Positions 35,493 through 62,237 of a stretch of DNA of 64,000 nucleotides are shown here, in pieces. The translations under genes and the position numbers were made by a program. The number at the start of each line of letters is the position of its first letter. Position 1 is the stretch's first letter. The notes beneath the pieces were generated by a model that had not been told where the DNA came from, did not search any database, and saw only the letters and a program-made list of their open reading frames with translations. This stretch comes from Laburnicola sp. R22_1. Taxonomy: Eukaryota; Ascomycota; Dothideomycetes; Pleosporales; Didymosphaeriaceae. The stretch spans positions 2,852,001-2,916,000 of the forward strand of contig JACONQ010000002.1 of assembly GCA_014281115.1 (NCBI GenBank). The letters are read 5' to 3'.

Positions 35493-36744
35493 ATGAAGCC
35501 AAAATTGTTAAAACTCGAAAGTTAAGTTTCTTTACTTAAAAAAGCAAATACTTCTAATTCTACTATTGCCACTACTCTTAATAAGCCTCTACAATCTATT
35601 AAGACTGCTATTAGACGTATTAATAAGAAAAATAAGGGAGATAACTTATTAAAAGGAGTAAAACAGGGGAGAGTAACTAAGATTACTTCTAGGGAGAAAA
35701 GAGTTATTAATAGAGATTTAACTAAAAGCCCTAAGAAGACAAATAAGAGGCTATTAGAAGAAAATAGTTTTGGCTTTACTAAGAGGAAGTTACAGAGAGT
35801 TTTAAAAGGAGAAGACTATTCTTTTAACATCTCTAAGAAAAAGGCCTATTTAACTAAAGAAAGAGCTAAAAGAAGAGAATTCTGGGCTAAAGAGATAGTT
35901 AAGGAGCTAGAAAATATTAACTTTGCTAAAGTTATATTTTCTGACGAGTCTACTATCCAAAGGGGACATGGTAATAGGCAAGAATATATAAGAAAAAGGG
36001 GAAAATCGAAAATTGGGCCTGAATAGCGCAAAAACCGAACAACTAGTAAGTTATTAATTTTTTTTAAATTCTAGAATTATAGAGCCCTTTTTTCTCTATA
36101 ATTGGGCTATTTTTCTTTTTTTATATCTTTTTTTGAGCTAGTACTAATTCACTGAAAGCGCGAGATATTTCTATCTCAGTCTGGGACTGTATTTGGATAG
36201 GAGAACGTTCTAAACTAGTGTTTTTAAGGGACCCTATTAAAACTAGGACCTTTAATAACACTATATATATACAGGAGTGTTTAAATCCTGTCTTAAAACC
36301 TCTTTTTAAAAGAGGTAAGTAAAGTACCCCTTTTTCTTCTTTTTTTTTTTTTTTTAATATATATAATATATATATATATTAAATTTTTTATAATCTTATT
36401 TTTTATACTAATTATAACTAGGCTGGAAATTTCAACAGGATAATTCGAAGATCCACGGAACTCCACAGGTGAAAAGGTGGTTTTCTAGGAATAAAGTCTT
36501 TGTTTTTGGGCATCCACCCTATTCACCAGACTTAAATCCTATAGAAAACGTTTGGAGTCTATTAAAAGATAGGCTAGGAAAAAGAAATAGGGCTTCTTTA
36601 GGCTTTGGCACTAGTAAATCTAGTGTAGAAGCCTTTAAAAAAGCTATATAAGAGGAGTGGGATTTAATTCCACAGGAGGCTATAGATTATTATATACTAT
36701 CTTTGCCGAAGCGTTATAATGACGTTATAGAGGCTAAAGGATAG
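35493..36744 (+). pseudogene. Tc1/mariner transposase, broken
   Basis: The N-terminal helix-turn-helix region carries KKANTSNSTIATTLNKP and TKSPKKTNKRLLEEN. The three catalytic blocks are present: IFSDESTIQRG (first Asp, ~35940), QQDNSKIHGTPQVKRWF (second Asp, ~36440), and HPPYSPDLNPIENVWSLLK (Glu of the DDE triad, ~36505-36570). The middle part has lost its frame (stops after SKIGPE at ~36024, and a poly(T)/AT microsatellite around 36338-36382). The final open part is 36469-36651. It is not functional. Confidence 0.88.
36338..36382. repeat. poly(T) and (AT)n microsatellite
   Basis: A T run of about 17 is followed by alternating AT, within the broken transposase. Confidence 0.8.
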
Positions 36745-37148
36745 TATACTAAGTACTAGTTATATATTATTTACTAGTTCTATCTAATTGTATAATTTTA
36801 ATTAATTTTTATATTTTTTCTTATAATTATTATTTCTATAAATAAACCTATAATAAAAATTAAGTTAGATAGTTCTTATAGAGTAAACTATAATATATAT
36901 AAGTTATAGAATTTTATCTACGTAGAAAAAAAGTTATATAGGGTTGAAGTTTTAAGAAAAAATTTCCTTAACTTTACTAAGATACCTCTAGTTAGCACTG
37001 ATTACTAAGCTCTTACTAACCTTCTATACTAAATCTCCTAAACCTTCTCCTTAAAACGGTATACTTTTTATTTACATAGTATTAAAACTCACCTAGTTAT
37101 ATAACTTTTAAAAAGGTATCTTTTTACTAGGAGCTTTTTTTGTGTCAC

Positions 37149-37484
37149 CCTACTGTATTAGGTGAGCTGCCTGCACGTCAAGCACCTTTTTGTCGGTCCG
37201 ACAAGTGCGCCAGGATCCTCAATTTTCCAAGTGTCTGGCTGGATTTTGTACGACTGTTCATCAACTACCACCACAACCCCGCCCACCTCCTTGCGGTCCG
37301 GGGTTGTCATGCGTTGAAGGCATCTGGGGAAATCAGCCCCACTTCCCACATCGCGAGACTTATTGTTATAAAGTCAGAGGCTCTCAAGGACGAGACAAAG
37401 CTTGGAGGAGACCATCGTCACTCAGTCTGCTTTCATTCTGAGCGCAACTCTTCTTTCCTGACTTGACCCCCCTCATTTCCAGTC
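37149..37484 (+). promoter_or_regulatory. permease promoter and leader
   Basis: Unique, GC-balanced DNA between the mariner end and the ATG. It holds the palindrome at 37191-37203 and three matches to the CreA carbon-repressor consensus SYGGRG: CCGGGG at 37298, CTGGGG at 37324, and GCGGGG on the complement at 37277-37282. No classical TATA box was picked. Function is inferred from position and motif match only; short CreA sites are common by chance. Confidence 0.55.
37191..37203. promoter_or_regulatory. 13-bp palindrome TGTCGGTCCGACA (site 2, permease promoter)
   Basis: 282 bp before the permease ATG. It is the same word as at 57325-57337 in the maltase promoter. The CGG-T-CCG core resembles paired half-sites of a Zn2Cys6 dimer with one-base spacing, but no known factor is assigned. 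Confidence 0.6.
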
Positions 37485-39210
37485 ATGGATGAATCCAAAG
37501 AAAGTGCCATACACCACGAGGGTGACATCGCCACTCAGAACAACTCCGGAAGGGCCGTGGCCCTCGCCGGTTCGTCTCAGGTCAACGACATGCTCAGAGC
37601 AGCCGAGGCGGCCGCCCTGCGAGAGAAGGACATGTCCATCAGAGAATCCATCAAGGCCTACCCCAAAGCGATCGCCTTCTCCATGATCCTCTCCCTTTGC
37701 CTCGTCATGGAAGGTTACGATACCGCCCTGACCGACGCCTTCTTCTCCCTGCCGCAGTTCCGGCAGAGGTTCGGCGAGCGCCTCAAGGACGGCGACCACC
37801 AGATCACTGCTTCCTGGATGTCCGGCCTCAAGAACGGCGTCCAGGTTGGCCAGATCCTGGGGCTGGTGGTGGCCGGCATTATTGCCGAGAGATACGGCTA
37901 CAAGAAAACCATCATCGGGTCCCTCATACTGCTCATCGGCTTCATTTTCATCTTCTTCTTCGCCTCGCACATTGCCATGCTCTTCGCCGCTGGTGTTCTG
38001 TGTGGTCTTCCCTGGGTATGTGGACCTTGTCCACACCCCCTTTTATAAACGTAAAAAATTAGACATATTTCTGACTTTGTTTTCGTAGGGCGCTTTCCAA
38101 ACCCTCACGACGACGTACGCTGCTGATGTGACCCCAATCCCCCTGCGACCTGTCCTCACGACCTACGTCAACATGTGCTGGGTGATGGGCCAGCTCATCA
38201 GCTCAGGTGTCCTGCGCGGTCTCATCAACCGCCAAGACAACTGGGCGTGGCGTATCCCCTATGCTATCCAATGGGTGTTTCCTCCCCCCATCATCATTGG
38301 TGTTCTCCTTGCCCCAGAGAGTCCCACCTGGCTCGTTCGCAAGGGGCGACTCGACGATGCAAGGAAGGCTCTGAGGCGGCTGACTAGTGCGTCATCTGAC
38401 GAGGAAATCAACAACACGATGGCCATGATCGCCTACACGGACCAGACGGAGAAGGAGTTGGTGGAAGGCGTCTCGTACTTGGATTGCTTCAGGGGCACTA
38501 ACCTGCGCCGCACGGAGATTGCCTGCATGGTCTGGGCTGCTCAAGTTCTGTGTGGTATCTGGTTTGGCGGCAACATAGTTTACTTCCTCCAGCAGGCCGG
38601 TTTCGATCCCGCCAGGTCCTTCGATTTCGGTATCGGCACGAGCGCCCTTGCGCTTGCGGGCACCATCGGGGCCTGGTTCCTGCTCCCACACGTCGGGCGC
38701 CGCAGACTCTATTTAGTTGGTCTGGGTATTATGCTCCTCATCCTGCTGACAGTGGGCTTCATGGGTATCCCGGCTCGCATGGATGCTATCGGTTGGGCCT
38801 CGGGCGCCCTGATGATGGTCTTCGTCGTTACGTATGATCTCACCGTTGGCCCAATTTGCTATTGTCTGGTGGCGGAGATTCCTACCACCCGCCTTCGCAT
38901 CAAGACTGCGGTCTTGGCCCGCAACACGTACAATGTTGTCAGTATCGCGGCCAACTTCCTGAACCCTCCTATCCTCAACCCGGGGGCCTGGAACCTCCGT
39001 GGCAAGGGGGGATTGGTCTGGGCTGTGCCCTGCGCCGCAGCTCTCATCTGGGCCTTCTTCCGCCTACCGGAAACAAAGGGACGCGCGATCTCGGAGTTGG
39101 ACAGCTTGTTCGCGAGGCGTGTTAGCGCCAGGAACTTTGCCAAAGAGGAGATTGCAATCTTGGAACAGGGTCTTGATGACAAATTGAAGGATGAGAAACC
39201 TTTGGTCTGA
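37485..39210 (+). CDS. MFS sugar permease, maltose/alpha-glucoside:H+ symporter type
   Basis: A plasma-membrane transporter that would import maltose or related alpha-glucosides with protons. Exon 1 is 37485-38015 and exon 2 is 38089-39210. The 73-bp intron (38016-38088, GTATGT...TAG) joins LPW to GAFQTL in phase 0. The product is 550 residues, the usual length for this family. It has about 12 hydrophobic helices. EGYDT (76-80) in the first helix and ERYGYKKT (135-142) in the loop after helix 2 are family marks. PESPTWL (253-259) is in the central loop, and PETKGR (504-509), followed by SELDSLFARRVSAR, closes the last helix, as in MAL-type permeases. The frame is intact, GC-rich and without RIP. 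Substrate is inferred from family resemblance and the nearby maltase. Confidence 0.9.
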
Positions 39211-40640
39211 TTGGGGGTAATAGTCTCCATGAATAAGTAATTGTGGGTTGGCTTGGAATTCAGAGATTGTTGACAGGCTCTGGAGTTGCAGCCTTCTCCA
39301 CTGGTCAGCCTCACTCTCTTCGTCACTCCTTCTGTACGCAGAATCGAAGTAGACATCCAACTCAAAGGGGTCTAGAAAATGGGGTGAAGCTAGGCCCCAA
39401 ATAGAGACTTTAACCTTTAAACACCAAATATGCACTGGTCCTGTACATAATGGCGGGTCTTGTCAGGCGAAGCTGGTGATGGAAAATGGTGATGTATGAA
39501 TGAATAAATGCAATTTATTCCGCCCCGGTGGACTAGGCATAGGGCCAAGTACGCTAGGCTATTTACAGTTCTTAAGTTTATCTTCACGTCTCCCAGAAGC
39601 TCCACATTCTTCATCCGCTAGTTGGTCTCGCCTCGTTTGACTCTATATTCCAGGCGGCCTACTTAAATGCCTATTTCTCTAAGTATTTAGTATCCTATTT
39701 TTAGCAGCTAAAGTATTGAACATCTTCGTCGTGTAGAGATTCTAACTAAGGTCGAGCAGCTAAAGTATATAAAACGTGGTGGGCCGGGTATAAGGCTCCT
39801 AACATGACAAACCCCGTGACTAGAGTAAGTTATAGTGATTGATTTTTAATTAATTAAATGCTTTGCTGTGGTTTTATTTAAGTTCTTGTAAGTTACTGAC
39901 GGTTAGGAAAAATGCCCCGCATACTTGGATGCCCCGCATGCTTACAATGTACGTCAATGTATTAGGATTAGATCCGTGCCGAGAACCTAGGAAGGATGGT
40001 GGGAATGAGAGCCCTGATTAACTACACAATGCCTGCCAAGGTCCCTGACAAGACTAGTGGCCCACCATCCAAGTGCCCCGCAGTGGACATGCCAGCACCG
40101 AAACATCTCATGGCACAGCTCGGACTGATGCTTCAGCCTGGCTGAGTCTCCAACCAGGCCACCACTCACACAACTTCCCTCCAACCATCATCGCAGCTCA
40201 GGTAGACACAATGCCTGCGGAGGAGCATGGCAGTTGCCAGTCGTAAATGCGAGTTCACCCGTTATCTGGGGAAGCCAAGTTTCTGGTGTTGCAGCATTTC
40301 TGTCGGTCCGACATATCGTTCGCATTCCCACCCTTCTTTCCCCTGGTGTTGTGGCTTGCCGGGCTGGCGTAAATCAAGACAGTTGCATCATGTAATGCGA
40401 TGACTCGAACACACAATTCAACAAACGCAAGAGACCTCCTGTATTTTCTCAGCTGGTTCATTAATCTGGAAGTGGTTGATCGTACGACTTTCTCATTGTG
40501 TGACTCGTCTACATTTCCAGGGTCGCAACCCCATCACCGTGATGTGATTCCACAGCTGAGCCAATACCGGTTCGCGACACTCGGTCCGACAGCAAGGTTT
40601 ATGCAGCGTAGTCAACGTAGCGTAGTACGGTACAGTTGAC
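39211..40640. other. host intergenic region downstream of the permease
   Basis: GC-balanced DNA with no convincing gene. 39640-39810 is AT-rich and includes a scrap of the LTR-like repeat (39711-39757). GCGGGG-type CreA matches (as CCCCGC) occur twice near 39914-39935 and once near 40075. The palindrome recurs at 40301-40313, followed by a pyrimidine-rich stretch, and a partial copy (TCGGTCCGACAG) lies at 40581-40592. A 10-bp inverted repeat (CGTAGCGTAG near 40616 and CTACGCTACG near 40652) sits at the border with the RIP block. The short open frames here look random. Confidence 0.6.
40301..40313. promoter_or_regulatory. 13-bp palindrome TGTCGGTCCGACA (site 3)
   Basis: A perfect copy in the intergenic region. 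No intact gene starts nearby, so it may have served a gene now lost or act at a distance on the maltase. Confidence 0.45.
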
Positions 40641-41147
40641 CCTTATTGCTCTACGCTACGGCTTGTATAGGCGCTACGTACGTATGGGAGCTACTAGAGA
40701 TGCTAGATTATGCCGCGTAACTGTAGTACAGTTTAAAAAGCTCTTTATAGGCTGTACTATACTAAAATCCTTCCTAATTAGGTAATTAGTAATTATTATT
40801 TAGCATTAAAGTTATTAAAAAGTTGTCCTTTTAGGTAATTAACTTTATAAGGTTAAAAAGGTTACTTTTAATAGCTTTTTAATATAGCTAATTCTTCTAT
40901 AAATATAAAGCCTTAATAGTATAGCTAATTAGACAATTATAATTGCACGTAATTGTATATTTTATAGTACTAAAACACCTCTTATAGTTGCATAATATAT
41001 AAGGCACTAAAAGGCAATTTATAGCTATTTTATATATAATTAGGTATTATTTTTAGCCTATTTTAACCTACTAATAGTATAGGTTATCTATAAGCCTTTT
41101 AATATATTATTATTGCAGCTAAGATCCTTTTATAAGTTATTTAAGTA
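40641..41147. other. RIP-mutated spacer at the left edge of block 2
   Basis: AT-rich, no gene. Base composition changes abruptly after about 40700. Confidence 0.6.
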
Positions 41148-43011
41148 ACGTGATTTACTAGCAAGTAATTCACACTAGTAAGCACGCTACCTTTGCTAAG
41201 ACCCTACTATTACTAATAATACTATTATAATATAACCACCTACTATGTCTTCTAAGCCATCTAATAAAGCTCGGTTACTTATTGCTATTAGAGCTATTAA
41301 ACAAGACCCAAATCTTATAGAGCGAGCAGCAGCAGGGCTATATAACGTTAATTGCAGAACGCTTAATTAAAGACGCAATAGAATAACTACACAATGCGAT
41401 AACCTACCTAAATTAAAGAATTTTACTCTCCTTAAGAAGCAGGCGCTTATTAATCGTATAATTAAGATAAACACGCGTGGATTCCCTCCTACAAAGCTTA
41501 TAATATGCACAATGGCTAATTTACTATGTTAATAGAAAGAAAAGCTATCTATTAGTATTAACTAGATAAATAGGTTTATTAAGCACAGATATAAAGTTAA
41601 AACGCGTTAGTCTTAGTTATATAACAACTAGAGGGTATAATAGAAAGATTCTAAGATTATAAACGCGTAGTTTAAGCTTATAAAGGGCATTAAAGTTAAG
41701 TATATTATTATAGATAAGGACACCTATAACTTTAATAAATTAGGCTTCCTAATAGGGGTTATAGAGTCTTAGCTTATGGTTATAGTATTAGAGAGGCGTG
41801 CGAAACCCAAATTAATATAGCTAGGCGACCGCTAGTAGATTACAGTAATCTAGAGTATCTGTGCTACTAGATAGGCAATCCCTCTCTTTATTATCTATGC
41901 TAGTAAGCGTTATATCTCTACCTAGTACAAAGACGCGTTAATTTCTAGCGATTAGGTAATCGCTATTAGCAAAAATAGCTAGATCAATAATAAGCTTAGT
42001 ATCGCGTAGTTAAAACACTTTAACGCGTATACAAAGGGACACGCTAAAGAAACCTATTAGCTGCTAGTTACTAATAGCTATAAGAGCTATAACTTAATTA
42101 AGTTTTAGAATTACTATAAGGAATATAAGATTATTACTCTCTATATGCCACCACATTCGTCACACCTACTATAGCTATTAGATATGGGCTGTTTCTCCCC
42201 ACTAAAGAAGGCATATAGTGCTAAGATCTTAGACTTAGCGCGTTAGCTAATAACCTATGTTATAAAGATCGAGTTTCTTCTAGCCTTTAAAACCGCGTTT
42301 TTAAAGGTTTTCTCTATAGAGACAATTAAGAGTAGTTTTCGCAGTGCTGGGCTAGTCCCATTAAATCCAAAGGAGGTATTACAGTACCTTAATATTCGCA
42401 TCTATATACCTAGTCTGTCTATTAAAGAGTCTACTACCTGGGAGTCTAAAACACTAAGTAACCTACGCGAATTTAAGACGCAATTAATACTAGTTTGCAA
42501 GAGAATTAGAGATTACTTTAATTTATTACTAACTTTAACTATGCAGGTGCTTAAGAAGCTTAAAAAAGGCGCTCTAAGTGCAATACATAGTTAGGTACTA
42601 GTGTTAGATAAAATTATAGGCCTTCGCAAGACAATTAAGGAGACTATAAGGTAAAAATCGCGTAAAAGGAGGTATATCTAGTAATAGGGATCACTTACAG
42701 TAGCAGAGGGATCTTAGCTAGCCACTTCTAAGGACGCTAGTAGACAAAAGAAGGGTAAACAATTATTAGGTACTAGTCGCGCTGCAATAGGGCTATTAAC
42801 TTAACAGTGTTATGGTATTTATAGGCAACCTAGACATAATACATAAACCTACCAAGGAGTTAAAGAGAAAGAATCTAAACTAGATGTATTAACTTAGTAT
42901 ATATTTTTAAGTAGTGTTGCGACGCAGTCTAATAATAAATAAAATAGTTTAGTGGGGTCTTGGCAAAGGTGGCGCGCTTACTAGTATAGATTACTTGCTA
43001 GTAAACTATAT
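41148..43011 (+). mobile_element. Fot-type transposon, family FotB, copy 2 (full length)
   Basis: 1864 bp flanked by TA. The ends start ACGTGATTTACTAGC with inner CTTTGCTAAGACCCTA. This is the best-readable transposase copy (separate entry). Confidence 0.92.
41245..42910 (+). pseudogene. FotB transposase, RIP-inactivated (copy 2)
   Basis: From the ATG at 41245: MSSKPSNKARLLIAIRAIK and the psq/HTH region QDPNLIERAAAGLYNVNCR; the CENP-B-type HTH block around 41450-41520 (INTRGFPPTKLI); the first DDE block DKDTYNFNKLGFLIGV; the second block LLVTNSYKSYNLIKF, with Asp now Asn; the third block LLDMGCFSPLKKAYSAK, with Asp kept; and a basic C-terminus. Some 20 stops sit at former Gln/Trp codons. This gives the family consensus frame for the copies at 29167, 49050 and 60372. 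Confidence 0.88.
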
Positions 43012-43035
43012 TACTTATTAAGTTATAATAATGTA

Positions 43036-44896
43036 CTTTATACTTAAGTTAATTATTCTATTAAGTTAATTACTTTACTAAGACTCTACTAAGTTCTATA
43101 CTATTTACAATAGTACAGAGTTAACATAAACTATTTTTAATAGTCTAAATAGGCTAATCTATTTAGAATCTACTTCTATAGACTACCTACAGGTTGTTTT
43201 ATTATGCCTAGGCTTACCGCAGCGTCCACAGTGCTGTTAAGCAGATTTGTCTCCATTAGCGTGCACCCTCTTCTTCGCCTTTTGCCTATTACTACACGCC
43301 CCAAACTCCTTTATAGTGGCTAGCTACTAGCCCTCTTTAGCTATAAGAACTCCTTTACACTGCACTCGCTTTCTTTTATGCGATTTATATTGTGTGACGG
43401 CCTTATTAGTAGTTTAAAGTTTGGCATTGCGTTTAGTTATTAATACTAAAGAATGCCCTATTAGCTTAGCGCCTTTAATAAGCTTTTTTACCACCTTAAC
43501 TATATAAGTTAGGAAACTATCTATATGCCTTTAAATCCTCTACTTAACTAGCATTAATTGCGACCTAAGTTCTATACTATTTCGCAGAGTTTACAACTCC
43601 TATATACTATTGTAAATAGTACTAAGTAGAGACGTATGTAGACGGACATTAAGCTACGATATTATAACTTCTAGGTTGTGGGGCACTAGGCCAGCACCTT
43701 AAAAGCCTCCTTTAATATTACTTTTAGTAATTAAAGCCTTAAAATCAGTAATAAAGCAAGATAGGAACTCGATTTTAGTAATGTGCATAATATGGTTGCG
43801 TATTAGATTCTTGGCTTAGCGCTTATACGCCTTCTTTAACAGTGTAAAATAACCTATATTAAGTGGCTATAAGAGGTGCGATAAATATAGAGGCATATAG
43901 AGAGTAATAATATTACTCTTTTTATAGTAATCCTAGAATTCGAGCGAGTTGTAACTTTCGTGGCTATTAATAATAAGTAAACGTACTCCACTAGTAGTAC
44001 GCCTCTTTATATACTTATTAAAGTGCTTTAGCCATTATAGACTAAGCTTATTTATTATCTAGCCGTTCTTAGAGACTGCAATAACCTAATTATAAGGTAG
44101 ATCCTTCTTCTTATACTAGGCAAAGAGGTAGTGCTTATCCCCAAAGATAATAAAGGGTAGGATCTACTACCCTATTACGTTAATGTCTTAGATAACTATT
44201 ATCCACTCCCTATTGCCCTACTGCACCTGCTTTGGCCGTCCTTAATGCTCAGAGCCTATAACTACTACTCTAGTTAATATTATGCCTATTATAAAGCTAG
44301 ACTTGTCGAAATTATAGGTGTTCTTATCCAGGATACTATACTTGGCCTTTATATTCTCCACAAGCCGGAATTAGCCTTGTATCACCTTAGGATCCTCCTA
44401 GAGGGCTCTCTTATAGTCGTACTTTCGATTAAACTTAACTTAAAGCTTTGGCTGGCGCTTAACAAAGTCATAAGGCTACCTCTAGCCAACTAGCTTGTAG
44501 TGGCGTGCAGCCAGTAAAGAATCGGCCATATCTTTTATAGTATTAAGCTAGGGCGGAAATCCTCGCGCGTCTAGGTTAAGTATATGCTGCAAAATTACCT
44601 GCTCCTCTCTTATAGTAAGTCGTATTTTATTAGGTGCGCAGTTACGTCTAAACGTCTTTCTGGTGCGTTAGTTGCTAAGTGTACTTTAAGAGATATTATA
44701 GAGGGCTGTAGCGCATTACTAAGAGAGTGTTATATCTTATTTAATAGTCTAGATTGTAAGCTATATACGCGCTTCTTTTAACGCTAGTAGTTTATTATGT
44801 AGTTAAGGCATCGCGTTGTACTATTACTAATAGTACGTTTTAGTGGGGTCTTGGCAAAGTAATTAACTTAATAAAATAATCGACTCAAGTGCAAAG
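43036..44896 (-). mobile_element. Fot-type transposon, family FotA, copy 2
   Basis: 1861 bp, TA-flanked. The ends start CTTTRYACTYRAG and match copy 1 (7793-9681) in reverse orientation. The transposase relic on the minus strand includes the equivalent of the LLQPLN block near 43860. The open frame 44584-44781 on the plus strand is antisense and not a gene. Confidence 0.9.
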
Positions 44897-44913
44897 TACG
44901 TTATATATTTATA

Positions 44914-47127
44914 ACATATTCTATTAGTAGCGTAGACAGATTAGTCCGCTAGATAGTTTTTCTTAGTAACTTCGAGGTCCCTTATAACTCATTATAGAAC
45001 ACCACTAACGTTACTTTATAGTGACTTATAATAATCTACAATAACTTATAATATACTAAGTTACTATTTAATCTACTTTTTATGTTGTGCAGCCTCTTTG
45101 CGCGGCTGCTGCAGCCGCGTAAAGCTAAGGAGTCTTTCTTGGCAATACGAACTTACAATAAGACTCCCTATAATATATAATATATTATCTACCATACTAT
45201 ACGTAGGCAATATATAGTATACTTATTATGATTCGTAGTGAAGTATACTATATCTTAAGTAGTACTTTATCTAATTTTTAGTCACTAAGTGCGTACTATT
45301 ACAAGATAAAGTTAACCCATTATTTTTAGCCTTATAGTAACCTATAATAAAATTACTCTAATTTACTATTAATACTATCTAAAAATAAGCTACTAAGAGT
45401 AACATCTGACTCCTTCTCTATCTCTTTATCTATCTAACAGGTCCTTAAGTTGTGCCTAGGCTCTTCGCACCTCTCACAGCGGCGTTGTGTTAAGGAATCT
45501 GCCTCTTCCTAACTACTACCTCGCGCCCTTTTTAACAACTTCACCCTAATAGAAGGGCTTTCTACTCCCAAATTTGCTTCCTAAGCAAAGCCTAGCGTCC
45601 CACCTTTCTAAATGCGCTTTCTTTTACGCGTTTTTCGCTTTGTTAGAATCTTAATTTACTTCTTAAGTTTCTTAATACGGGTCTCTTAAAGTACACTATA
45701 GTAGAGCATAAGTTTAGCACCTTTTATAAGCTGTGAGTAGCTCGATTTAGCATTAGGTGGAGACCGAATAAAAGAGTCGCGTACGAGCTTTGACTAGGAT
45801 CCAAACTCGAGGGTATTACTTAGGGTCCTGGCTTGCTATGGTGTATCCAGTGGGGTACCCTAAGGTGGAGTGTGAATACGCCCATTAAGGCGATCTACCA
45901 CCACTAACACATCTAAAGGAACAAGCCTAGAGGCCTTAAAGGCTTTCTTGTAGTTTTCTAGTATAAACATATTAAAAAATACGTTGCGAAAGGCTAGTAG
46001 GAAGCCCTTTTTATTAATATAAAAGACGCGTTAGCACGCTAAGTCCCGCATGTGCTAGGAGTACTTTAGCTTTAGTGGCGCGAAATAGACCATATTAAGT
46101 AGCTAGAGGATATAAGATGAGTGCGCTGGCATACAGAGTGTTAGGATCTTCTATTCTAGGCAATAATCCTTAAAATTCTAGGAGTAATAGCTCTTATAGT
46201 CGTCTAGAATAAGTAACCTCTATAACCCTATTATGCGCGGCCTTATATACGCGTTAAAGTGCTTTAACTACGCGACTCTAAGCTCGCTATTAGTCTAGTC
46301 AGTCTTAGAGACTAAGAGCTTCTAATCGCGGGAGATACTAGTCTCCTTATACCACGCTAAGATGTAGACTCGCCCTTTATAAATAATAAAGAGTAGAGTA
46401 GTATACCTAGTAGCGCAAATACTCTAAATCACTGTAACCTACTTATAGTTGCCTAGCTAAACAAGCGTAGGTTAAGAACGTCTTTCTAAACTAGTTACAA
46501 CCTTTATTAAGCTAATAACTCCTATCTAGAAGCCTATTTTATTAAAGTTATAGATATCTTTATCCTACACTCTATACTTGGCTTTGGTGTTCTCCACTAG
46601 CTAAAACCACGCGTTTATAATCTCTAGGTCTTCCTATTATATCCTCTATTAGTTCTTTGCTTAATTAAAAGCCATTTTAAGCTTAGGTATGCGCTTTACA
46701 AAGCGCTAAGCCTAGCATTATTCTATAGGGTCTCTATACTACGCAGCTAGTAGTTTGTTGGCCATATTTTCTATCTTACCTAGCTGGAGTGCAAATTCTC
46801 GCGAATCTAGATTGAGAATATACTATATAAGCGTCTGCTCTTTAGTTATAATAAGCTTTATTATGCCTAATTGTGTATCTACTTAGGCGGTAATTCCGTT
46901 AATTTAATCGCTTAGTGTAGACTTTGGGATATTATACACTGTAGTAGCGCATTATAGGCTTAAAATTTGCTTATTCTAATAGGCGTGAAGGGCAAGCTTA
47001 ATTCTGCCTTCTTAATTAGATAATAACGCGTCGTGTTGTTAAGACATTATAATTCATAGTGAAGTATTGTAGTCTTGGCAAAAACTGTCCGGCGGACTAA
47101 TCTATTCGGGCTACTAATAGAATATAT
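44914..47127 (-). mobile_element. Fot-type transposon, family FotC, copy 2
   Basis: 2214 bp, TA-flanked. The ends start ACATATTCTATTAGTAGC, with GTCTTGGCAAAAACTGTCC inside the right end. The transposase relic is on the minus strand (for example the first DDE block near 46550-46570). It begins 17 bp after FotA copy 2. Confidence 0.88.
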
Positions 47128-47699
47128 TAGTATTTATATTACTTATTATTAGTAAGAAGTATAGAATCTACGCTTATTATTTACGTTCTCCTTATATTGC
47201 CTTTATACGCCCTAGGGACCTTGCGTAATAGTAAAGATAACTCTAGGTAATTTATAGTCTTATTTTTAGTATTAATATAGTTTTAAAAATACTTTATATA
47301 GTAGCACCTTAGCCTTTTTATACTATATAGGATGCTTTTTCTAGTAGTCTTTATACTAGGCAATACGCAGCTATAGGTGTAATATAGTAGCTATATAGTA
47401 TAGAAATAAATCTAGGTCTATTATAATTTTATTAAAGTATATTATAAGCTTTTCTAGTATAAGCATAACGCCTTATTTAATATACATAGAGTCTATAAAG
47501 TCCTTAATTTAATATACGTGCTTAGTTAGTAACTTATAAAGTTGCTATAGGTTAATAATTATCTACTAGAGTAACTTAAACATACTAATACTAGCTATAC
47601 CTTATAGAGCCTTATAAAGCTTATAAAACTATTATAGCACCTATATTATTATATAGATTTCCTTTTAGTTATTATTAGATAGTATATTAGTTATTATGT

Positions 47700-47733
47700 T
47701 ATATATATATATTATTATTATTATTATTATTAG
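47700..47733. repeat. (AT)n-(ATT)n microsatellite
   Basis: Alternating AT is followed by about eight TTA/ATT units. Confidence 0.85.
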
Positions 47734-47924
47734 GAACCTTTAGAAAGTTAGTAGTATTATATATATATTATATAAACTTGCAAATTAGGTCCTTAAGCTT
47801 CTAGTAACATAGTAATATAAGGTAAATGCTATACTATTTAATACTACTATCCTATACTAAACTAAGCATACTAAAGTTTTAAATTAAGTCCTTATTACCT
47901 AATTATTACTAGGTTATATAGAAA

Positions 47925-48165
47925 AGTCTCTCCTAGGCAGAAGTATAAACTGCCTCCACTTATTAGTTTTTAAGTGGCCCTACTACGTTTAATTACTGCG
48001 TTTTTTTATTATATTACTAGCGCCTATATAATATTATATAATATTATATACATGCTAAGCCCTAGGACTAGAGCGTATTAAAGTTTTTTTAATGCCTCCT
48101 CTAGCTTCTAAAATAATCTATAATAATAACACCTTGCCTACCTACCTGCCTACTATGTTATTAGA
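47925..48165. repeat. repeat R1, copy 2 (inverse of 283-520)
   Basis: Reverse complement of the block next to the aquaporin, sharing AATAAGTGGAGGCAGTTTAT and the TAATATTATATAATATTATA tract. Here it is internal to block 2. Confidence 0.7.
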
Positions 48166-49049
48166 CAATTAATGCCTATCTTTTAATCTTTCGCCGCATT
48201 ACTAAATAATTAACTACTTAGAACCCTTAGATATACACCCTACTACTATAATATATAATAAATTACGCGCGCGCCTACTCCTAATACTAAATAGCACCTT
48301 ACTATTCTCTACTAACAATCTATTAACCAATTAACCTTTAAATACCTAGCTATTACTCTATTTATATCCTATAGAAATTTTATAATATAAGCGCGTACCT
48401 ATATATTCTCTATACCTCTAGCACTTATTAAGTATAGCTATTATTATAGAAGTAATAAGCTATTAATTAGAAATCTAATATTACTTACAGCCATTAATAG
48501 TAATTATTTCTATAAGCTATATAGTAGTATATAGCTACTAGCCTAGACTTTTACTTTATAAAAATATCTATATTCTTTTAGTCCTTATTCTTAATAGTTG
48601 TAAGCATCTTGCACCTAAACTAGTATAAGGTAATTTATATTATAAGGCTTATTTTACTTTTAATTCTAAACTTCTACTTACTAATATCTATATTTTACTT
48701 AATATAGCAATCTAATTCTATAGCAGCTATCTACTTGCTATATAGGTCCTTAGTATAGACTATATAGTTTTTAATATTAAGTAGCATCTAGCTATTATAT
48801 CTAGCTATATTATATCGAGCTATATTATTATTTACGTCTTTTAGGTAGGAGCGCAATATTACACGTCTAGTAGTAATAGCAATAGCATTATTAGAGTAAG
48901 AAATAGATATAGCGCAGACCTTAAAATCTTACGCAATAATTAAATATATTATATAGTAGATAAATAAATACTTAATCTCTAGTTGCAGATTTTATATTGC
49001 GTATACATAGACAACTAGGTGTTATATTATTACTTTAGTATCTAGTATA

Positions 49050-50913
49050 ACGTGGTTTACTAGCGAGTAACCCACACTAGTAAGCGCGCCATCTTTGCCA
49101 AGAACCCACCAAACCATTTTATTTATTATTAGACTGCGTCGCAACACTACTTAAAAATATATACTAAGTTAATGCATCTAATTTAGATTCTTCCTCTTTA
49201 ACTCCTTAGCAGGTTTGCGCATTATATCCAGGTTGCCTATAAATACCATAATGCCGTTAAGTTAATAGCTCTATTATAGCGCGACTAGTACCTAACAACT
49301 ATTTACCCTTCTTCTATCCACTAGCGTTCTTAGGAGTGGCTAGCTAAGATCCCTCTACTACTATAAGTAATCTCTAATACTAGATATACCTCCTTTTACG
49401 CAATTTTCGCCTTATAGTCTTCTTAATTATCTTGTAAAGACCTGTAATTTTATCCAACACTAGTACCTAACTATGCATTATACTTAGAGCGCCTTTTTTA
49501 AGCTTCTTAAGTACCTGCATAGTTAAAGTTAGTAATAAATTAAAGTGATCTCTAATTCTCTTGCGAACTAGTGTTAATTACGCCTTAAATTTACATAGGT
49601 TACTTAGTGTTTTAGACTTCTAGGTAGTAGGCTCTTTAATAGGCAGACTAGGTATACGGATATGGATGTTAAAGTGCTATAACACCTCCTCTAAATTTAA
49701 TAAGACTAGCCCAGCACCGTAAAAACCACCCTTAAATATCTTTGCAGATAAAACCTTCAAAAACGCGATTTTAAAGACTAGGAGGAACTTAATCTTTATA
49801 ATATAGATTATTAGCCAATACGCTAAGCCTAAGATCTTAGCACTATATGCCTTCTTTAGCGGGAAGAAACAGCCCACATCTAATAGCTACAGTAGATGTG
49901 ATAAATATAGTAGTATATAAAGAGTAATAATCTTATATTCCTTATAGTAATCCTAGAACTTAATTAAGTTATAGCTCTTATAGCTATTAATAACTAGCAG
50001 CTAATAGGTTTCTTTAGCGTGTCCCTTTGTATGCGCGTTAAAGTGTTTTAACTACGCGATACTAAGCTTGTTATTTATCTGGCTATTTTTGCTAATAGCG
50101 ATTACCTAATCGCTAGAAATTAACGCGTCTTTGTACTAGGTAGAGATATAACGCTTACTAGCGTAGATAATAAAGAGAGGGATTGCCTATCTAGTAGTAC
50201 AGATACTCTAGATTACTGTAATCTACTAGCGGTCGCCTAGCTATATTAATTTGGGTTTCGCACGCCTCTCTAATGCTATAACTACAAGCTAAGATCCTAT
50301 AACCCCTATTAGGAAGCCTAATTTATTAAAGTTATAGGTGTCCTTATCTATAATGCCATACTTAACTTTAATGCTCTCTACAAGCTTAAACTACGCGTTT
50401 ATAATCTTAGAATCTTTCTATTGTGCCCTCTAGTTATTATATAACTAAGACTAACGCGTTTTAACTTTACGTCTGCGCTTAATAAACCTGTCTGTCTAGT
50501 TAATACTAATAGGTGGCTTTCCTCTCTATAAACGTAGTAAATTAGCCATTATGCGTATTATAAGCTTCGCAGAAGGGAATCCACGCGTGTCTAGCTTAAT
50601 TATACAATTAACAAGCGTCTGCTCCTTAAGAAGAGTAAAATTCTTTAATTTAGATAGGTTATCGCGTTGTGCAGTTATTCTATTACGTCTTTAATTAAGT
50701 GTTCTGCAATTAACGTTATACAGCCCTACTACTACTCGCTCTATAAGATTTAGGTCTTATTTAATAGCTCTAATAGCAATAAGTAACCACGCTTTATTAG
50801 ATGGCTTAGAAGACATAGTAGGTGATTGTATTATAATGGTATTATTAGTAATAGTAGGGTCTTAGCAAAGGTAGTGCGCTTACTAGTGTGGATTACTTGC
50901 TAGTAAACTACGT
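49050..50913 (-). mobile_element. Fot-type transposon, family FotB, copy 3 (full length)
   Basis: 1864 bp, TA-flanked. The ends start ACGTGGTTTACTAGCGAG and ACGTAGTTTACTAGCAAG. The minus-strand transposase relic includes the open fragment 49677-49877 (MGCFFPLKKAYSAKILGLAY). Confidence 0.92.
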
Positions 50914-50915
50914 TA

Positions 50916-52929
50916 TCTTATAATTAACTACCTCTAGTAGAAGGGGCTAATTTGCATGTGTTAACAAATAGTTCTTAGCCTAACCTATTTATTTTTAAGC
51001 TACTTTATCTTTTTTAATATATTTTTAGCATACCTATAGCTTTCTCTTACAGCGTTATACTATATACTAAAAGGTCTGCGATATTTTTCTTCCTAGTATA
51101 GAAAAGCTTATAGCGTTTATAAAATACGTATATAGTATTTATAAAATTATATAGCTTACTAATAATATTACGCTATTAGTATAGTTAATATTACTCTTAG
51201 AAAGAGGCATAGGTAAGGTTTATTTTAAATTTGCTTACTCTAGTACTATATATAAGTGCCTTAATAATTAGGTTAATTTTATATCCTAAGTAGCATATAT
51301 AGTGTTAACTTCTAATGCTAAGGCTAGTTAATAAGTTAATATGTTTAATAAATTTTATAGTTTTTTTTACGACTAAGGAGTTTCTAATAAAAATATTATA
51401 ATAATAGTAGATATTCCTCCTACTATTGTATACACAGAAAAGCGTTTTAAGATGTTAATAAATAGAGGTTAGCGCGTTGGCCCAAGCTCGCTAAGCGAGA
51501 ATAAATTTTTATATTATTATTGCCTATATTATTATATATAAAATAATAGAGTTATTACTTAAAGTTATACTTGCGAATAATTTAAATAATAACTTAGACT
51601 TACGTAGCTACTATATAGTTACTAAAAGTATTATAGAAGGTAATAAGTAGATTACGTTATTAGCATTAAGTATCTAAAATATAAAAAGTTAATATTAAAA
51701 ATTACTAAGTCCCTTATTAATAAGGTTACTAGAGCGAAATAACTAATATATTAATAATGTAGGCAATAACTCTAAGATAGCTTATATTATTTAGTAATAT
51801 CTATAAATTATAACTTATACTTATTTTACTTTGCGCTGTACGTAAAAGCTTTGCAACTTTTTTTTACTTTACTATACTTATTTATATATATTTTAATAGC
51901 GTAATATAGCTAGCTAGTAGAGTGTATAAAAGATTAGTTTAATTCTATATTAAAAGGCTTTAGGAAGCTGCTAATATTACTATTTAAAAGCTAAGATCTT
52001 TAGCAACTACCTAGTTAATAAAGGCACTTTAAAGCTTTTTCTTATGCTATAGCGTATGCAACACTATTAACTACGCGCTAGTAGCTTTATCTATAGATTT
52101 TAAGGCTTTACAGCCTCTATAATAGGTAATAATTTAGTATTTAAATTAACTTTGTGCACTTTTTTAAAGTAGACTTTAATATACACTATACTATTAATAC
52201 GCTAGTAATTAGCTGCCCTTTATATAAGGTAATAGTCCTTATATAGCTATAAGACTAATTTACTAACTATGTTATTCTTTAGGTACTCTAACTTAGCTTT
52301 ATATTACTATATAGATATAGGCGCGCGCTTACCCTTAAATTGTAATTTATAGCAAACTCTATACTTAACTTTACTAAAGGCTAGATAGTAATTATTATAC
52401 TAAAGACGGTTCTAGTTAATATTAAAGGCCTCTTCTATATAATAATCTAGATACTAGATATATAATCTTATTATAACACCTAAAGTACTTTTATATAATA
52501 TAGATAACTCTAATAATATATACTTACTATTAGTAGTAATAGTAAAAGTAGTGTTAAGCCTTTATAATATAGTAGTATATTAAAAGCAATAATTAAGGGT
52601 ACTTTAAAATAATTATAAGGCCTAGAACTATATATTTTGCAATATATTATAGGCAAAAGCTAATAAGTTACTACTTAAGGAGTACTAGAAAATTCTGCTA
52701 TAATAAAGGCCTATTAGGCGCCTTTATAATCTAAGCTTATACTACACTAAAAAGGGCAAAAAATAGCTAAGAATAGCCTCCTAAATACTAAAAGGTTGTA
52801 TTAAAATCTAATAAAAAGGCTCCTATAGAGCTATAACTACGCTATATTTATATATAAATTATAGCTATAATATAGCCTAGGGTGTAGCTACATACGTACA
52901 GTGTATAGAATGTACTACAGGATGTACTA
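50916..52929. other. RIP-mutated stretch at the right edge of block 2, no gene
   Basis: AT-rich with no readable frame. It includes a truncated retroposon at 51357-51499. Confidence 0.6.
51357..51499 (-). mobile_element. LINE-like retroposon, 5'-truncated copy (~143 bp)
   Basis: A T run then ACGACTAAGGAGTTTC..., the complement of the family 3' end, stopping at AGCTCGCTAAGCGAG. The flanks are AATAAATTTT (51347-51356 and 51500-51509). Confidence 0.75.
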
Positions 52930-53044
52930 TTACGCATAGTACGATGCGTTGTCAACGCTGGGTTTATGCCACGCCCGGTGTGCTTCGACTACCTTAGATG
53001 GGCGGAATAATTGCATGCATAAGCTGGCCAACAAATGAGGGGTA
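52930..53044. other. unique host DNA between block 2 and the pogo element
   Basis: 115 bp of GC-balanced sequence. It was probably contiguous with 57321 onward (maltase upstream region) before the pogo insertion. Confidence 0.55.
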
Positions 53045-54843
53045 ACGTGTCCGTGCGCGTGATGCGCGGATTCGCGTGATGCGCGGGCAACACCAAAACG
53101 CCCTACTTTCAATACGCGACAACTCCATCAATATGGATCCAATTCAAGCGGCGATTGATAATATTGAATCAATAGAGCCAGGTGAAACTTTCTCGTACAC
53201 AAAAACTGCTACTAAATATGGTGTTGTACGGTCTACATTAATCCGAAGGCATCAAGGGATAACGCGCCCTACACAAGTCAAGAACTCTAGTCAGCAAAAG
53301 CTCACCCCGCAGCAAGAGCAGGAGCTTGTACAATATATCAAAAGACTTACAGAGAGACATACACCTCCTACTAGAAAAATAATACAGAACTTTGCCTCTG
53401 CTAGGTTACCCACTTTATTAACCAACACAGCATTTATCTTATCTCATAATAGACAGTTGGCATGGACAGCAATCGCCACAAAGCTAATTTAGTAGATAAA
53501 TATCGCCTCTATTTTCACCTTCTACACAGCAAGATTAATTAATATTAGATAGATCCTTGTTATACCTATAATATAGATAAGAAAGGCTTTCTAATTAGTA
53601 TTGTTAGTAAATTAAAGAGGATATTTAGCAGACGAATGTGGGAGAAGAAGGAGGTTAGGGCATCACTCCAAGATAGCAATCGCGCATAGATCACGCTCCT
53701 AGCATGTATCTGCGCTAATAGATCAGCTCTGCCACCAAGCCTTATCTATAAGGCTGCTAATAAGAGCATCTAATTAAGCTAGGTAGAGGATATTAAGGCA
53801 GAAGATTATAAAGTCTTTATTACCTCATTATCCTCTAGCTAGACAAATAACAATATTGGGCTTGCCTGGCTTAAACAGGTGTTTAATCGCTATATAAGAG
53901 AGAAGACCTAATAATCACATTGACTCCTAATCCTAGATAGCCATAGCTCCCACATCACTATAGACTTTATTAACTACTATAATCGGAATAAGATTCTGCT
54001 TGCCGTCCTGCCTCCTTATTTAACTTATACGCTTTAGCCACTTAACATTACGATGTTTAAGTCTCTATTAATAGCCTACTTAATAGAACTGTTAACACAC
54101 CTCTATAGAAGTTAGGGTCTAGCTTCTATTACTAAAGGCAACTTCTTCCCCCTATTCTAGAATGCGTGGAAGGCTTCCTTTAAGGAATTAATAATTCTTA
54201 GCTCTTTTAGGGCAACAGGCATATCACCACCTAATTCGAATATAATCCTTAATAGATTCACTAAATCTTAAGATTTAAGAAAAAGCTCTCTATTATCACT
54301 TAGCGATTATAATTAGAGAAAGGTAGATAGGCTTATACGCTCTGTGGTTAAGGATTAGAGTAGTAGAAATACACAGAAGCTTTGTTAATCGCTCTACTAC
54401 CTATCTGTCCAAAATAAGCTACTTAAGTATAAGATGGATGGGATTAAGCAGGCACTATCTATTAAGGAGAAGCGCAGAAAGAAGGGCAAGACTCTAGATC
54501 TCTAACAGCGTTAGGAGTATTATAGTAGAGCAGTCTTCTAGTTACCAAGGAAGCTAAGGGAGGCACGTGTTCGTTAATCTATTAAGGAGTAGGAGGAGAA
54601 GCAGCAGCAGCTTTAAAAAGTAGAGACAGCAGAGCTAAAGAAGGCAGCTAAGTTATATAAGGAGAAGATCCAGCAGGAGAAGCGTGTTGCGCGAGAGGCA
54701 GCTATAGAGCCAAAAGAGAAAGAGAGCTGAAAAGGCAGCTTAGCGCGCTGCCTAGAAGTCTGCCTATAACGCAGAAAAGGCTCTACAAATATCCTAAAAG
54801 GGTAAAAGAAAGGCCTCTTAGCCATCTCTACAGAGCAGAAAGC

Positions 54844-57055
54844 GGGAATTGATAGGGGGACCACCACTTTTACTAGTGGCACCACCCTGACTAAGCGTCA
54901 CCATGACTAAGCCGCAGACTCCGCATAGCACCCTAGCAACGACTGTTTATGTTCCTGTCACTGCACACTCCACTAGAAATAACACTATTATGGAACCTCC
55001 TTCTGAATCCACTTATCCTGACCAAGAAGCACTTATTTCTTCTGTGCGACAATTCGCTCTTGATCATGGCTATGTTCTCACAATTCGACGCTCAACCGCG
55101 AACAAGAATGTGGTATTAGGCTGCGATCTTGGTAGGAAATACCACGACCGGATTAATGCACCTAACGGTTCCAAGCGTAGAAAGACCTCAACACAACAGA
55201 TTAGCTGTCCTTTTCAGCTTTACGGTGCACGCCGCAGTGATGGAACTTGGGATCTTAAGGTGAGGAACCCGCAACATACACATGGGGCTAACGATTTAGT
55301 AGCACATCCGCACGCGCGAAAATTCACGGCCGAACAAAGGGTAGAGATTGCTCGACTGTCTAGACTTAATGTTAAACCGCAAGCCATTGAAGCCATTCTT
55401 CGAGATAAGAACTCTTCTGCGCTCTTTACTCGCCGCGACATCTATAACATACGTATGGCCAAGCGTATTAAGCAATTAGAAGGGAGATCACCAGTGGAAC
55501 ACCTTATAGATCGACTTCTAAAAGAAGGAAACTAGGAACATAGACTATAGTGTGATAGTAGTATACATATAACATTTCTTATATTCGCGCATAAGAGGTC
55601 AATTGAGTTTGCTAACAAATATAATAGGGTCTTCCTCCTTGACTGCACTTACAAGACAAACTAATACCGCATGCCTCTGCTTCATATTATTAGTGTCGCT
55701 CCAATAAATGCCAGCTTCTTAATTGCATTTTGCTTCATGCAGGACAAATAAGCCAAAAGCTACCTATAGGCTCTACGCTCTTTCCTTTCGCTTCTTAAGC
55801 TGCCTATCGAACCTCCTGTACTGTGTACAGACCGAGATGCCGCACTTCTATCCGCAATTAGCGATAAAGTCCCTTAGTTTCCGCATCTTCTTTGTGTATG
55901 GCACATTTATAAGAATGTCTAAGCAAATTGTAAGAAGGAATTCTCGACAAATAAGGAATACAACAACTTCTTTAGCCGCTAGATTAAGATTTGTACCGCA
56001 CATACAGAGGGGCTCTATGAACAAGCTAAAAGCGAGATAGAGGCGTTCCTTGCAGACAAGCAGTATGTGTTCCGCTACTTGAATAAGACATGGCTTGTAC
56101 ATCGAGAGAAATTTGTGGTGGCATGGTTCTAACAGTGGCTACATCTAGGAAATGCTGCAACCTCACAAGTAGAGGGAGCGCATGCCGCTGTAAAGCACTA
56201 GATCACTAATTCCACAGCTGATATCTTGTTAGTATTTGAGCTTGTGGAGAAGAGTGTTAAAGGGCAGCTTAATGCTCTTACTGCGGCACTTGCTCAGGAC
56301 CGCATTTTTATTCCTGTATTCCCCAGTAAGACGCTTTTTGTTAACATCATTCGCAGGGTCTCAAGGCACGCTATTGTTCTCCTAGTTCAGCAGCATGACA
56401 AAGTTAAACGGGCTACAGGAACAACTCCATTAGCCCGATGTACAAACGTTTTTAGCAGAACAATGGGATTGCCCTGCTCCCATCGAATTTTAGATATATT
56501 GGAGTCGAAATCGGCTATCGAGCTTAAGGAAATACACCCTTTCTGGCGGATTGAGGAGTCTTCTCTTCTATATAGGTACTAAATCTCTCCATATTCCATT
56601 ACATATTCTAATATTCTATTTCGTTTAGGCTAATCCTGGAACCTCGTCTCCTAACATCTACAAAGCAGCGCTGTTCGCCCTTTCCAACCTCTTAAGGCAA
56701 AGCTGAGAAGAGGAGTCCTTCATTATTTGAGGTTGGAGAAGCTAAGGCATTAGAAGGACTATTACGGGGGAGTGGCTTGCCACAAGGATATAAGAAAAGG
56801 CCTCCAACCTGTTCTAATTGCCATATAGAAGGTTATACAAGGACTTAGTGCCCCGTAGGGCGTGGGTAGGGTTGTTGATTTAATTAGTTAATCTATAGAA
56901 TTCTATTTTAAATGTATCTAGCAACTGCGCCTCTGCACATCAATCCTCTATTTGCATTGTCAGGAGCGCGATGTTGTGCGTCTGCGGCTTAGTCATGGTG
57001 ACGCTTAGTCAGGGTGGTGCCACTAGTAAAAGTGGTGGTCCCCCTATCAATTCCC
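54844..57055 (+). mobile_element. Mutator-like element (MULE) with FAR1-type transposase
   Basis: 2212 bp with perfect 76-bp terminal inverted repeats (54844-54919 and 56980-57055, starting GGGAATTGATAGGGGGACC). It is flanked by the 9-bp duplication GCAGAAAGC (54835-54843 and 57056-57064), the size expected for Mutator elements. It is inserted into the 3' part of the pogo transposase gene. Confidence 0.96.
54903..56855 (+). pseudogene. MULE transposase (FAR1 DNA-binding, DDE, SWIM, zinc knuckle), broken
   Basis: The first open part (54903-55535; ATG 54990 is the more natural start because 54903 lies in the inverted repeat) holds a FAR1/WRKY-GCM1-type zinc-binding domain: GCDLG, SCPFQLYGARR, HTHG. 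After a TAG the frame continues with FLLDCTYKTN (first catalytic Asp, ~55650), LCTDREMPHF (second Asp, ~55830), a frameshift, VEGAHAAVKH (~56173) and, in 56226-56582, a SWIM finger FSRTMGLPCSHRI. Near 56807-56855 a zinc knuckle CSNCHIEGYTRT-stop-CP has His changed to Tyr and a stop, both C/T or G/A type. It is not active as it stands. Confidence 0.88.
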
Positions 57056-57318
57056 GCAGAAAGCGTTAGAAACGTCTTATTAATGCTGCAGATATTAGGG
57101 AGGCCTCAGAGGGCGCATCTGCTGCTCCGACCAAATCTACACGCCGCGGCCGCAACGTTAAGCTTCCAGATAGATTTAAATAGTGTAAATAAATTGTAGC
57201 TATTAACTTACTACCCTGCAATAAAATCTCGTAATAATATTAATCGTAGGTGGTTCTATAGCCTCGTTTTCAATAGAGCGTTTTTGGTGTTGCCCGCGCA
57301 TCACGCGCACGGACACGT

Positions 57319-57632
57319 TAATGATGTCGGTCCGACAAGACCAATGCCAACTAAGAGGTCATGCTCCACCCGGATTCCCACAACTGGGGATTTAAAGGAA
57401 AATCGCAACATTCTGGCCGATGGATTGAGCCAAATCCAACTCCCTTCCTGTAATAACGGCACGATAAGATTCTGTAACGTCTCTCGCTGAGCGTTGCTAC
57501 TATTTTACCCTCGAACGCTGAGAAAACTGTTTGCAAGAAAATAATCTGATTTCCGACAATCATTAACTCCTCAATCTTTCATTCTCTCCTTTCTCCCTTC
57601 CCTCCTTCCTTTCGGCCTATATCCAAGCCAAA
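57319..57632 (+). promoter_or_regulatory. maltase promoter and leader
   Basis: 314 bp of unique DNA between the pogo end and the ATG. The palindrome is at 57325-57337, a CreA-type CTGGGG at 57384-57389, and a strongly pyrimidine-rich leader at about 57570-57620, as in many well-expressed fungal genes. Upstream host sequence has been displaced by the pogo insertion. Confidence 0.6.
57325..57337. promoter_or_regulatory. 13-bp palindrome TGTCGGTCCGACA (site 4, maltase promoter)
   Basis: 295 bp before the maltase ATG and only 6 bp inside the host side of the pogo end. Same word and nearly the same distance as in the permease promoter. Confidence 0.6.
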
Positions 57633-62235: not shown

Positions 62236-62237
62236 TA

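What the first reader, a model, noticed from the sequence alone, without database searches (positions are those of the whole stretch)
37191..57337. A 13-bp perfect palindrome is shared by the permease and maltase promoters at nearly equal distance
TGTCGGTCCGACA is at 37191-37203 (282 bp before the permease ATG) and 57325-57337 (295 bp before the maltase ATG). Identical copies lie at 19993-20005 and 40301-40313, with a partial one at 40581-40592. Four perfect 13-mers in 64 kb is far above chance, and all lie in the unmutated islands, not in transposon debris. The CGG-T-CCG core suggests a Zn2Cys6-type dimer site for co-regulating uptake and hydrolysis. I do not know of a maltose regulator with this site.
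Basis: partly seen in the sequence, partly recalled or inferred. Interest (0 to 1): 0.78.

Follow-up and report, generated by a model that had tools for sequence, protein, structure and literature searches.

The report
Private promoter palindrome of maltose genes
A 13-letter palindrome that occurs only four times in a whole fungal genome sits in the control regions of a sugar-uptake gene and its partner maltase gene, and is probably the landing site of a maltose-responsive regulator whose DNA address in moulds is not known.

Summary
TGTCGGTCCGACA occurs exactly four times in the 63.9-Mb fungal genome, all within 37 kb of this window. All four lie in single-copy DNA. Transposons hide a simpler layout. 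Rejoining the flanks at an 8-bp and a TA target duplication makes the permease-maltase gap 1,780 bp, with CGGTCCG cores at -305, -407 and -685 of the maltase. The permease promoter has cores at -291 and -191. The fourth perfect copy is in a 240-bp unique fragment 17 kb upstream.

Best explanation: a cluster-private operator of a maltose (MAL) regulon, read by a Zn2Cys6 regulator. The leading candidate, outside the window, is an intact Zn2Cys6 gene 78 kb beyond the maltase. For 33 of its 120 best-listed relatives the longest-contig length equals that of a maltase relative. Binding is not shown. AmyR and CLR-1 patterns are absent from the scanned promoters, and the yeast MAL pattern occurs once, which chance allows. 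Against: the candidate's own promoter lacks the site, its history differs from the maltase's, and no relative's promoter DNA could be examined.

The parts
19993..20005 (+). perfect 13-mer palindrome, copy 1, in a ~240-bp single-copy fragment (19904-20143) between two ends of one repeat family
37191..37203 (+). perfect 13-mer palindrome, copy 2, permease promoter (CGG at -291); 38 bp after the TA next to a transposon
37294..37300 (+). further CGGTCCG core in the permease promoter (-191), flanks not matching the 13-mer
37485..39211 (+). alpha-glucoside permease gene (sugar-porter MFS), exons 37485-38015 and 38089-39211, intact, 550 aa
   Evidence: splice; 83% to an Ilyonectria general substrate transporter
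40301..40313 (+). perfect 13-mer palindrome, copy 3; CGG at -685 of the maltase when insertions are taken out, 17 kb away now
40579..40591 (+). partial copy ACTCGGTCCGACA (11/13); CGG at -407 of the maltase when insertions are taken out
40604..52960 (.). insertion block with an 8-bp target duplication GGTTTATG (40596-40603, 52961-52968), hAT-like by that length only; its left end matched 15 and its right end 34 other places in the genome, and other elements are nested inside
53045..57318 (.). insertion between two TA copies, with ACGTGTCCGTGCGCG terminal inverted repeats (pogo/Fot-like by eye), nested inverted repeat inside
35073..37150 (.). insertion between two TA copies, with GRGTGACACAAAAAAAGC terminal inverted repeats, upstream of the permease promoter
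57325..57337 (+). perfect 13-mer palindrome, copy 4, maltase promoter (CGG at -305); 4 bp from the TA next to the insertion
57633..59432 (+). GH13 alpha-glucosidase (maltase), intact single open frame, 599 aa

Best explanation
TGTCGG-T-CCGACA is the private operator of a maltose-utilisation (MAL) regulon of this fungus. Shown: it is unique to the locus, lies in single-copy promoter DNA, and its CGGTCCG core occurs several times in front of both genes. Inferred: a Zn2Cys6 activator binds the inverted CGG triplets, with TGT/ACA flanks adding specificity. Several sites per promoter then give maltose-induced co-expression of uptake and hydrolysis. The most likely binder is the MAL-type Zn2Cys6 protein at contig C12:2989215-2990775 (window coordinates 137215-138775, outside the window). 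Transposons later pushed the sites and genes apart. My split: cis-regulatory operator of the pair about 0.75; read by a Zn2Cys6 protein about 0.65; by this particular protein about 0.4.
For: Exactly 4 copies in 63.9 Mb, all in 37 kb. 5 of 152 genome-wide 9-bp cores are here (0.09 expected), and only these carry the full flanks. The surrounding stretches are single-copy. CGGNCCG occurs 6 times in 2,354 bp of unique DNA, against 0.54 expected from GC-rich flanking DNA. The longest word shared by the permease promoter (331 bp) and maltase upstream DNA (991 bp) is 15 bp, TGTCGGTCCGACAAG; 1 of 400 first-order Markov controls reached 15. Two cores stand 100 bp apart in the permease promoter and 102 bp apart in the rejoined maltase promoter. 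Candidate regulator: intact, Zn_clus E 1.4e-9. For 33 of its 120 best-listed relatives (of 338) the longest-contig length equals that of one of the 120 listed maltase relatives, several with neighbouring locus tags; the permease control gave 2 of 64 against the maltase and 0 of 64 against the regulator. Its zinc cluster and KRKP-RGRLVAQLR linker look much alike in the 14 relatives printed (by eye). Two Monosporascus records have a permease relative fused to a downstream Zn2Cys6 protein.
Against: No binding or expression data. The candidate regulator's own promoter has no CGGNCCG but does have two CGC-N9-CG patterns of the yeast MAL kind close to its ATG. It is 94% identical to its F. nematophilum relative, while the maltase is 77% identical to F. 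nematophilum's and groups with Mariannaea and Neonectria relatives instead, so the two have different histories here. The residue after the first-helix arginine varies among the regulator's relatives (V, F, L, Y), so recognition may vary too. A 1-bp gap between inverted CGG triplets is shorter than in the Zn2Cys6 dimer sites that I recall (6-11 bp). Yeast MAL activators read direct CGC/CGG-N9-CGN repeats (passages); here this pattern occurs once, overlapping the partial copy, against 2.6 expected. Eight stretches around six paralogous sugar genes, and the one around the C2 factor, hold no CGGNCCG. Outside the locus the 1-bp gap is not preferred (1 of 30 sites). Orthologous promoters could not be read.
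Confidence: 0.6

Rival explanations
1. The word is a real operator, but of a different Zn2Cys6 protein acting in trans (for example a CLR-1-like cellodextrin regulator, or the C2:745353 factor), not the MAL-type gene 78 kb away.
For: The CLR-1 motif CGGN5CGGNCCG contains the same CGGNCCG core (passages). Fusarium graminearum has a promoter motif CGGnCCG, M18, with no functional group in its table row (passage). The C2 factor was the better hit of the Monosporascus permease-adjacent regulator (67.3 against 56.7 bits).
Against: The full CLR-1 motif is absent at all six cores. The 13-mer is confined to one locus, unlike a broad regulator's site.
Confidence: 0.25
2. Relic: the permease-maltase pair came from another lineage with its operators, its cognate regulator is missing here, and the sites no longer work.
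For: No listed relative of the maltase or permease is as close as the regulator's 94% one: best 85% for the maltase, 84% over most of the permease (87% for a fragment); trees disagree. The locus is full of transposons, two sites have been moved far from the maltase, and no clear second regulator relic was found in the window or 100 kb on either side (three weak matches, E 0.01-0.03).
Against: Both genes are intact and both keep a perfect site in the proximal promoter; four copies are still letter-perfect beside heavily mutated DNA.
Confidence: 0.2
3. Transposon-related word (end, target site or footprint) or chance.
For: Two insertions lie 4 bp from a copy (target duplication from 40596; TA at 57319-57320), one 38 bp away; two of three within 5 bp has a post hoc probability of 0.001.
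Against: Flanks of the four copies are unrelated by eye, apart from AG after two of them. The insertions differ in target duplication and end sequence; the one family near a copy whose copies were counted has dozens of genomic matches, yet the word exists only four times and only here. Chance clustering of four points is about 8e-10.
Confidence: 0.04

Closest known systems
Yeast MAL loci (Malx3/Mal63 and Yfl052w regulators with MAL permease and maltase)
   Same: Permease and maltase co-regulated by a Zn2Cys6 activator; maltose genes carry several sites per promoter (PMC4172970, passages read).
   Different: Yeast sites are CGC/CGG triplets in direct order 9 bp apart; here one inverted CGG-T-CCG with TGT/ACA flanks.
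Aspergillus oryzae MAL cluster (malP, malT, malR)
   Same: Same gene kinds under a Zn2Cys6 regulator (passages); many relatives of the regulator found here appear to share a contig with the maltase (33 of 120).
   Different: MalR's binding sequence was stated to be not known (PMC8180590, passages read; table entry 'Unknown' in PMC5468973, passages read), so sites cannot be compared. Here transposons split the locus and the regulator lies 78 kb away. Homology of this regulator to MalR itself was not tested.
CLR-1/ClrA motif CGGN5CGGNCCG
   Same: Contains CGGNCCG (passages).
   Different: The further CGG triplet at N5 is missing at all six cores.
F. graminearum promoter motif M18 (CGGnCCG)
   Same: Same core in a related fungus; no functional group in its table row (PMC2853525, passages read).
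   Different: A short genome-wide motif (table row 369, 93, 0.25; column headings not seen); here a 13-bp word private to one locus.
AmyR site CGGN8(C/A)GG
   Same: Starch/maltose regulator reading CGG triplets (passages).
   Different: None in the permease promoter or the 388-bp proximal maltase promoter.

Membership tests
Fungal MAL regulon (permease + GH13 maltase + Zn2Cys6 regulator) | intact alpha-glucoside permease and GH13 maltase side by side | tested here: met
   1,780 bp apart without insertions. Substrate not tested.
Fungal MAL regulon (permease + GH13 maltase + Zn2Cys6 regulator) | linked Zn2Cys6 regulator of the family linked to this maltase in relatives | tested here: inconclusive
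   Family met, but 78 kb away and with a different phylogenetic history
Fungal MAL regulon (permease + GH13 maltase + Zn2Cys6 regulator) | maltose-induced co-expression through shared promoter sites | not testable with these tools
   no expression or binding data
Yeast MAL activator site | CGC/CGG-N9-CGN in several copies per promoter | tested here: not met
   0 in the permease promoter (331 bp) and in island 1 (240 bp); 1 reverse match in 991 bp of maltase upstream DNA; 2.6 expected by chance in permease plus maltase DNA
CLR-1 site | CGGN5CGGNCCG | tested here: not met
   0 of 6 cores
AmyR site | CGGN8(C/A)GG | tested here: not met
   0 in permease promoter (331 bp) and proximal maltase promoter (388 bp)
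Transposon/MITE end | word repeated at element ends across the genome | tested here: not met
   4 copies in genome, all in single-copy DNA

The most novel reading that the evidence does not exclude
TGTCGG-T-CCGACA is the first recognisable operator of the filamentous-fungal MAL-cluster regulators: an inverted CGG pair with a 1-bp gap, used in pairs about 100 bp apart and unlike the yeast direct repeats. It would mean that MAL regulators changed their way of reading DNA between yeasts and moulds. In addition, transposons entered this regulon within a few bases of the operators.
Probability: 0.3. Interest if true: 0.7.

Novelty: new variant of a known kind. Interest (0 to 1): 0.52.

Why it matters
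Maltose sensing by MalR precedes amylase induction in Aspergillus oryzae, yet a 2021 review states that details of MalR activation and its binding sequence are not known (PMC8180590, passages read). This locus offers a concrete 13-bp candidate, a concrete regulator gene and an internal test (several copies in two promoters). It also shows how transposon invasion can stretch a compact regulon while sparing its operators.

Tried and rejected
Zn2Cys6 signature search over 264 kb around the locus found nothing, because the regulator's zinc cluster is split by an intron. A PF04082 search of the genome (98 matches, a lower bound) also missed it. tblastn with 14 regulator relatives plus the Monosporascus regulator piece found no clear relic of a second regulator in 264 kb, only three weak matches at E 0.01-0.03. 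Whether the 19993 fragment was the distal permease promoter could not be settled: it lies between two ends of one repeat family and I found no target duplication linking it to the permease. Paper searches for the core, its spellings and MAL regulators showed no maltose regulator with this site in the listings that I saw (20 of 52, 40 of 79, 4 of 4, 6 of 6, 12 of 18 and 7 of 7 papers); passages of seven papers were read. The library holds open-licence papers only. The TGTCGG-N0..20-CCGACA scan shows no preference for a 1-bp gap outside the locus (1 of 30 sites). The 31368 two-mismatch copy is in AT-rich mutated DNA and was dropped. The trees use rows that I picked by hand (32 of 120 maltases, 26 of 120 regulators, 24 of 120 permeases, plus our own), so they are rough.
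Full report
The word and its rarity. The window lies in a 63.9-Mb genome on contig C12. A genome-wide search finds four copies, all here and on one strand; the reversed control word has three. TGTCGG-N0..20-CCGACA gives 34 sites; spacing 1 accounts for five, four of them here. The 9-bp core has 152 sites, of which the first 100 are listed; five are in this 37 kb, and no larger group stands in the listed part. Given the 152 cores, the chance that all four fully flanked ones fall among these five is 2e-7, and of five or more cores in 37 kb 4e-8. These figures are post hoc but leave little room for chance.

Setting. The region is AT-rich, mutated repeat DNA (repeat-induced point mutation by its look) with islands of normal composition. 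Five unique stretches around the copies, joined into one query, matched only themselves in the genome (5 matches, 5 of 5 candidates scored). An earlier query that included insertion edges gave 54 matches with 40 of 140 candidates scored: the edge 40604-40660 matched 15 other places and the edge 52786-52960 matched 34. These edges are the two ends of one insertion: GGTTTATG stands on both sides (40596, 52961), an 8-bp duplication as hAT elements make (recalled). A second insertion, 53045-57318, has matching inverted ends and TA on both sides. A third, 35073-37150, likewise; its TA ends 38 bp before the permease copy. Copy 1 lies in about 240 unique bases between two ends of one short repeat family; how it once related to the permease is open.

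Layout without insertions. Rejoined at the duplications, permease stop and maltase ATG are 1,780 bp apart. Cores CGGTCCG stand at -685, -407 and -305 of the maltase and at -291 and -191 of the permease, so that each promoter has two cores about 100 bp apart (102 and 100). CGGNCCG occurs once per 4.3 kb in GC-rich neighbouring DNA (29 in 126,000 bp), so six in 2,354 unique bases is about 11-fold too many (P 2e-5). All six have T at the centre on the coding strand. The permease and maltase promoters share a 15-bp word; of 400 controls 398 had 12 or less and one each reached 13 and 15.

Genes. The permease (550 aa, one intron) is 82-84% identical to proteins of Ilyonectria, Fusarium duplospermum and Plectosphaerella, and 86-87% to two unnamed fragments. 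The maltase (599 aa) is a GH13 protein, at best 85% identical to an unnamed protein and 82% to Mariannaea, Cylindrodendrum and Neonectria proteins; the next match in its own genome is 48%.

Regulator. None was found in the window. Two Monosporascus records hold a permease relative fused to a Zn2Cys6 protein. Searching the genome with that protein gave two hits: C2:745353 (67.3 bits, 31%) and C12:2989315 (56.7 bits, 26%), the latter 78 kb beyond the maltase on the same strand. It is an intact 503-aa gene with an intron inside the zinc cluster. Of the 120 best-listed relatives (338 found) of an alignment of it with the Monosporascus piece, 33 have the same longest-contig length as one of the 120 listed maltase relatives, and several have neighbouring locus tags, such as FZEAL_8530/8532, QQZ08_002052/002053 and K4F52_006583/006582. 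The permease set gave 2 of 64 against the maltase (one of them two 2,007-base contigs, probably coincidence) and 0 of 64 against the regulator. Equal contig length is a proxy for one contig, not proof. So the maltase and this regulator look like a conserved pair; this permease does not usually appear to be part of it.

What does not fit. The regulator's nearest relative is F. nematophilum's (94%, sister in the tree), but the maltase is 77% identical to F. nematophilum's and falls outside the main Fusarium group, with Mariannaea and an unnamed protein (0.99) and then Neonectria and its kin (0.99). The pair and the regulator therefore have different histories here: transfer, or duplication and loss. 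The zinc cluster and linker look much alike in the 14 relatives printed, with some variation next to the recognition arginine, so a native regulator might still read incoming operators. The regulator's promoter has no CGGNCCG but has two yeast-like CGC-N9-CG patterns. AmyR and CLR-1 patterns are absent from the scanned promoters, and the yeast pattern occurs once there, against 2.6 expected.

Reading. Shown: a private, repeated, single-copy promoter word tied to two maltose-type genes. Inferred: binding by a Zn2Cys6 dimer, maltose control and the identity of the protein. In yeast, maltose promoters need more than one regulator site (PMC4172970 and PMC6142294, passages read). If that holds here, the maltase, which keeps one site within 312 bp of unique upstream DNA, may have been weakened by the insertions; this is a testable prediction, not a result.

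Noticed in passing
C12:2989003-2989018 and 2989041-2989056 (window coordinates 137003 and 137041, outside the window): A 16-bp perfect palindrome GCACAGCTAGCTGTGC occurs exactly twice in the genome, both in the promoter of the candidate regulator, 38 bp apart.
   Followed up: partly
40592-40603 and 57319-57324: Two transposon insertions with different target duplications lie 4 bp from a copy of the palindrome; two of three insertions within 5 bp of a copy has a post hoc probability of about 0.001, as if bound or open operators attracted them.
   Followed up: partly
1646-7692: A young-looking retrotransposon (copia type by eye) with two long open frames (1908-3791, 3792-7172, minus strand) and 193-nt repeats at its ends 98% alike, in contrast to the mutated repeats around it.
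   Followed up: no
29146-30521 (part), 41146-43025, 49048-50915, 60358-62237: Four related copies of one element with TA at its ends, about 90% alike, in both orientations.
   Followed up: no
54842-54919 and 56980-57057: A perfect 78-nt inverted repeat nested inside the insertion upstream of the maltase, with a 210-codon open frame (54903-55535) inside.
   Followed up: no
P0170 and P0173: Two Monosporascus records join a permease and a Zn2Cys6 regulator in one predicted protein, probably two neighbouring genes fused by the annotation.
   Followed up: yes
57633-59432 and C12:2989215-2990775: Maltase and regulator give conflicting trees, suggesting transfer or hidden paralogy of the permease-maltase pair.
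   Followed up: partly
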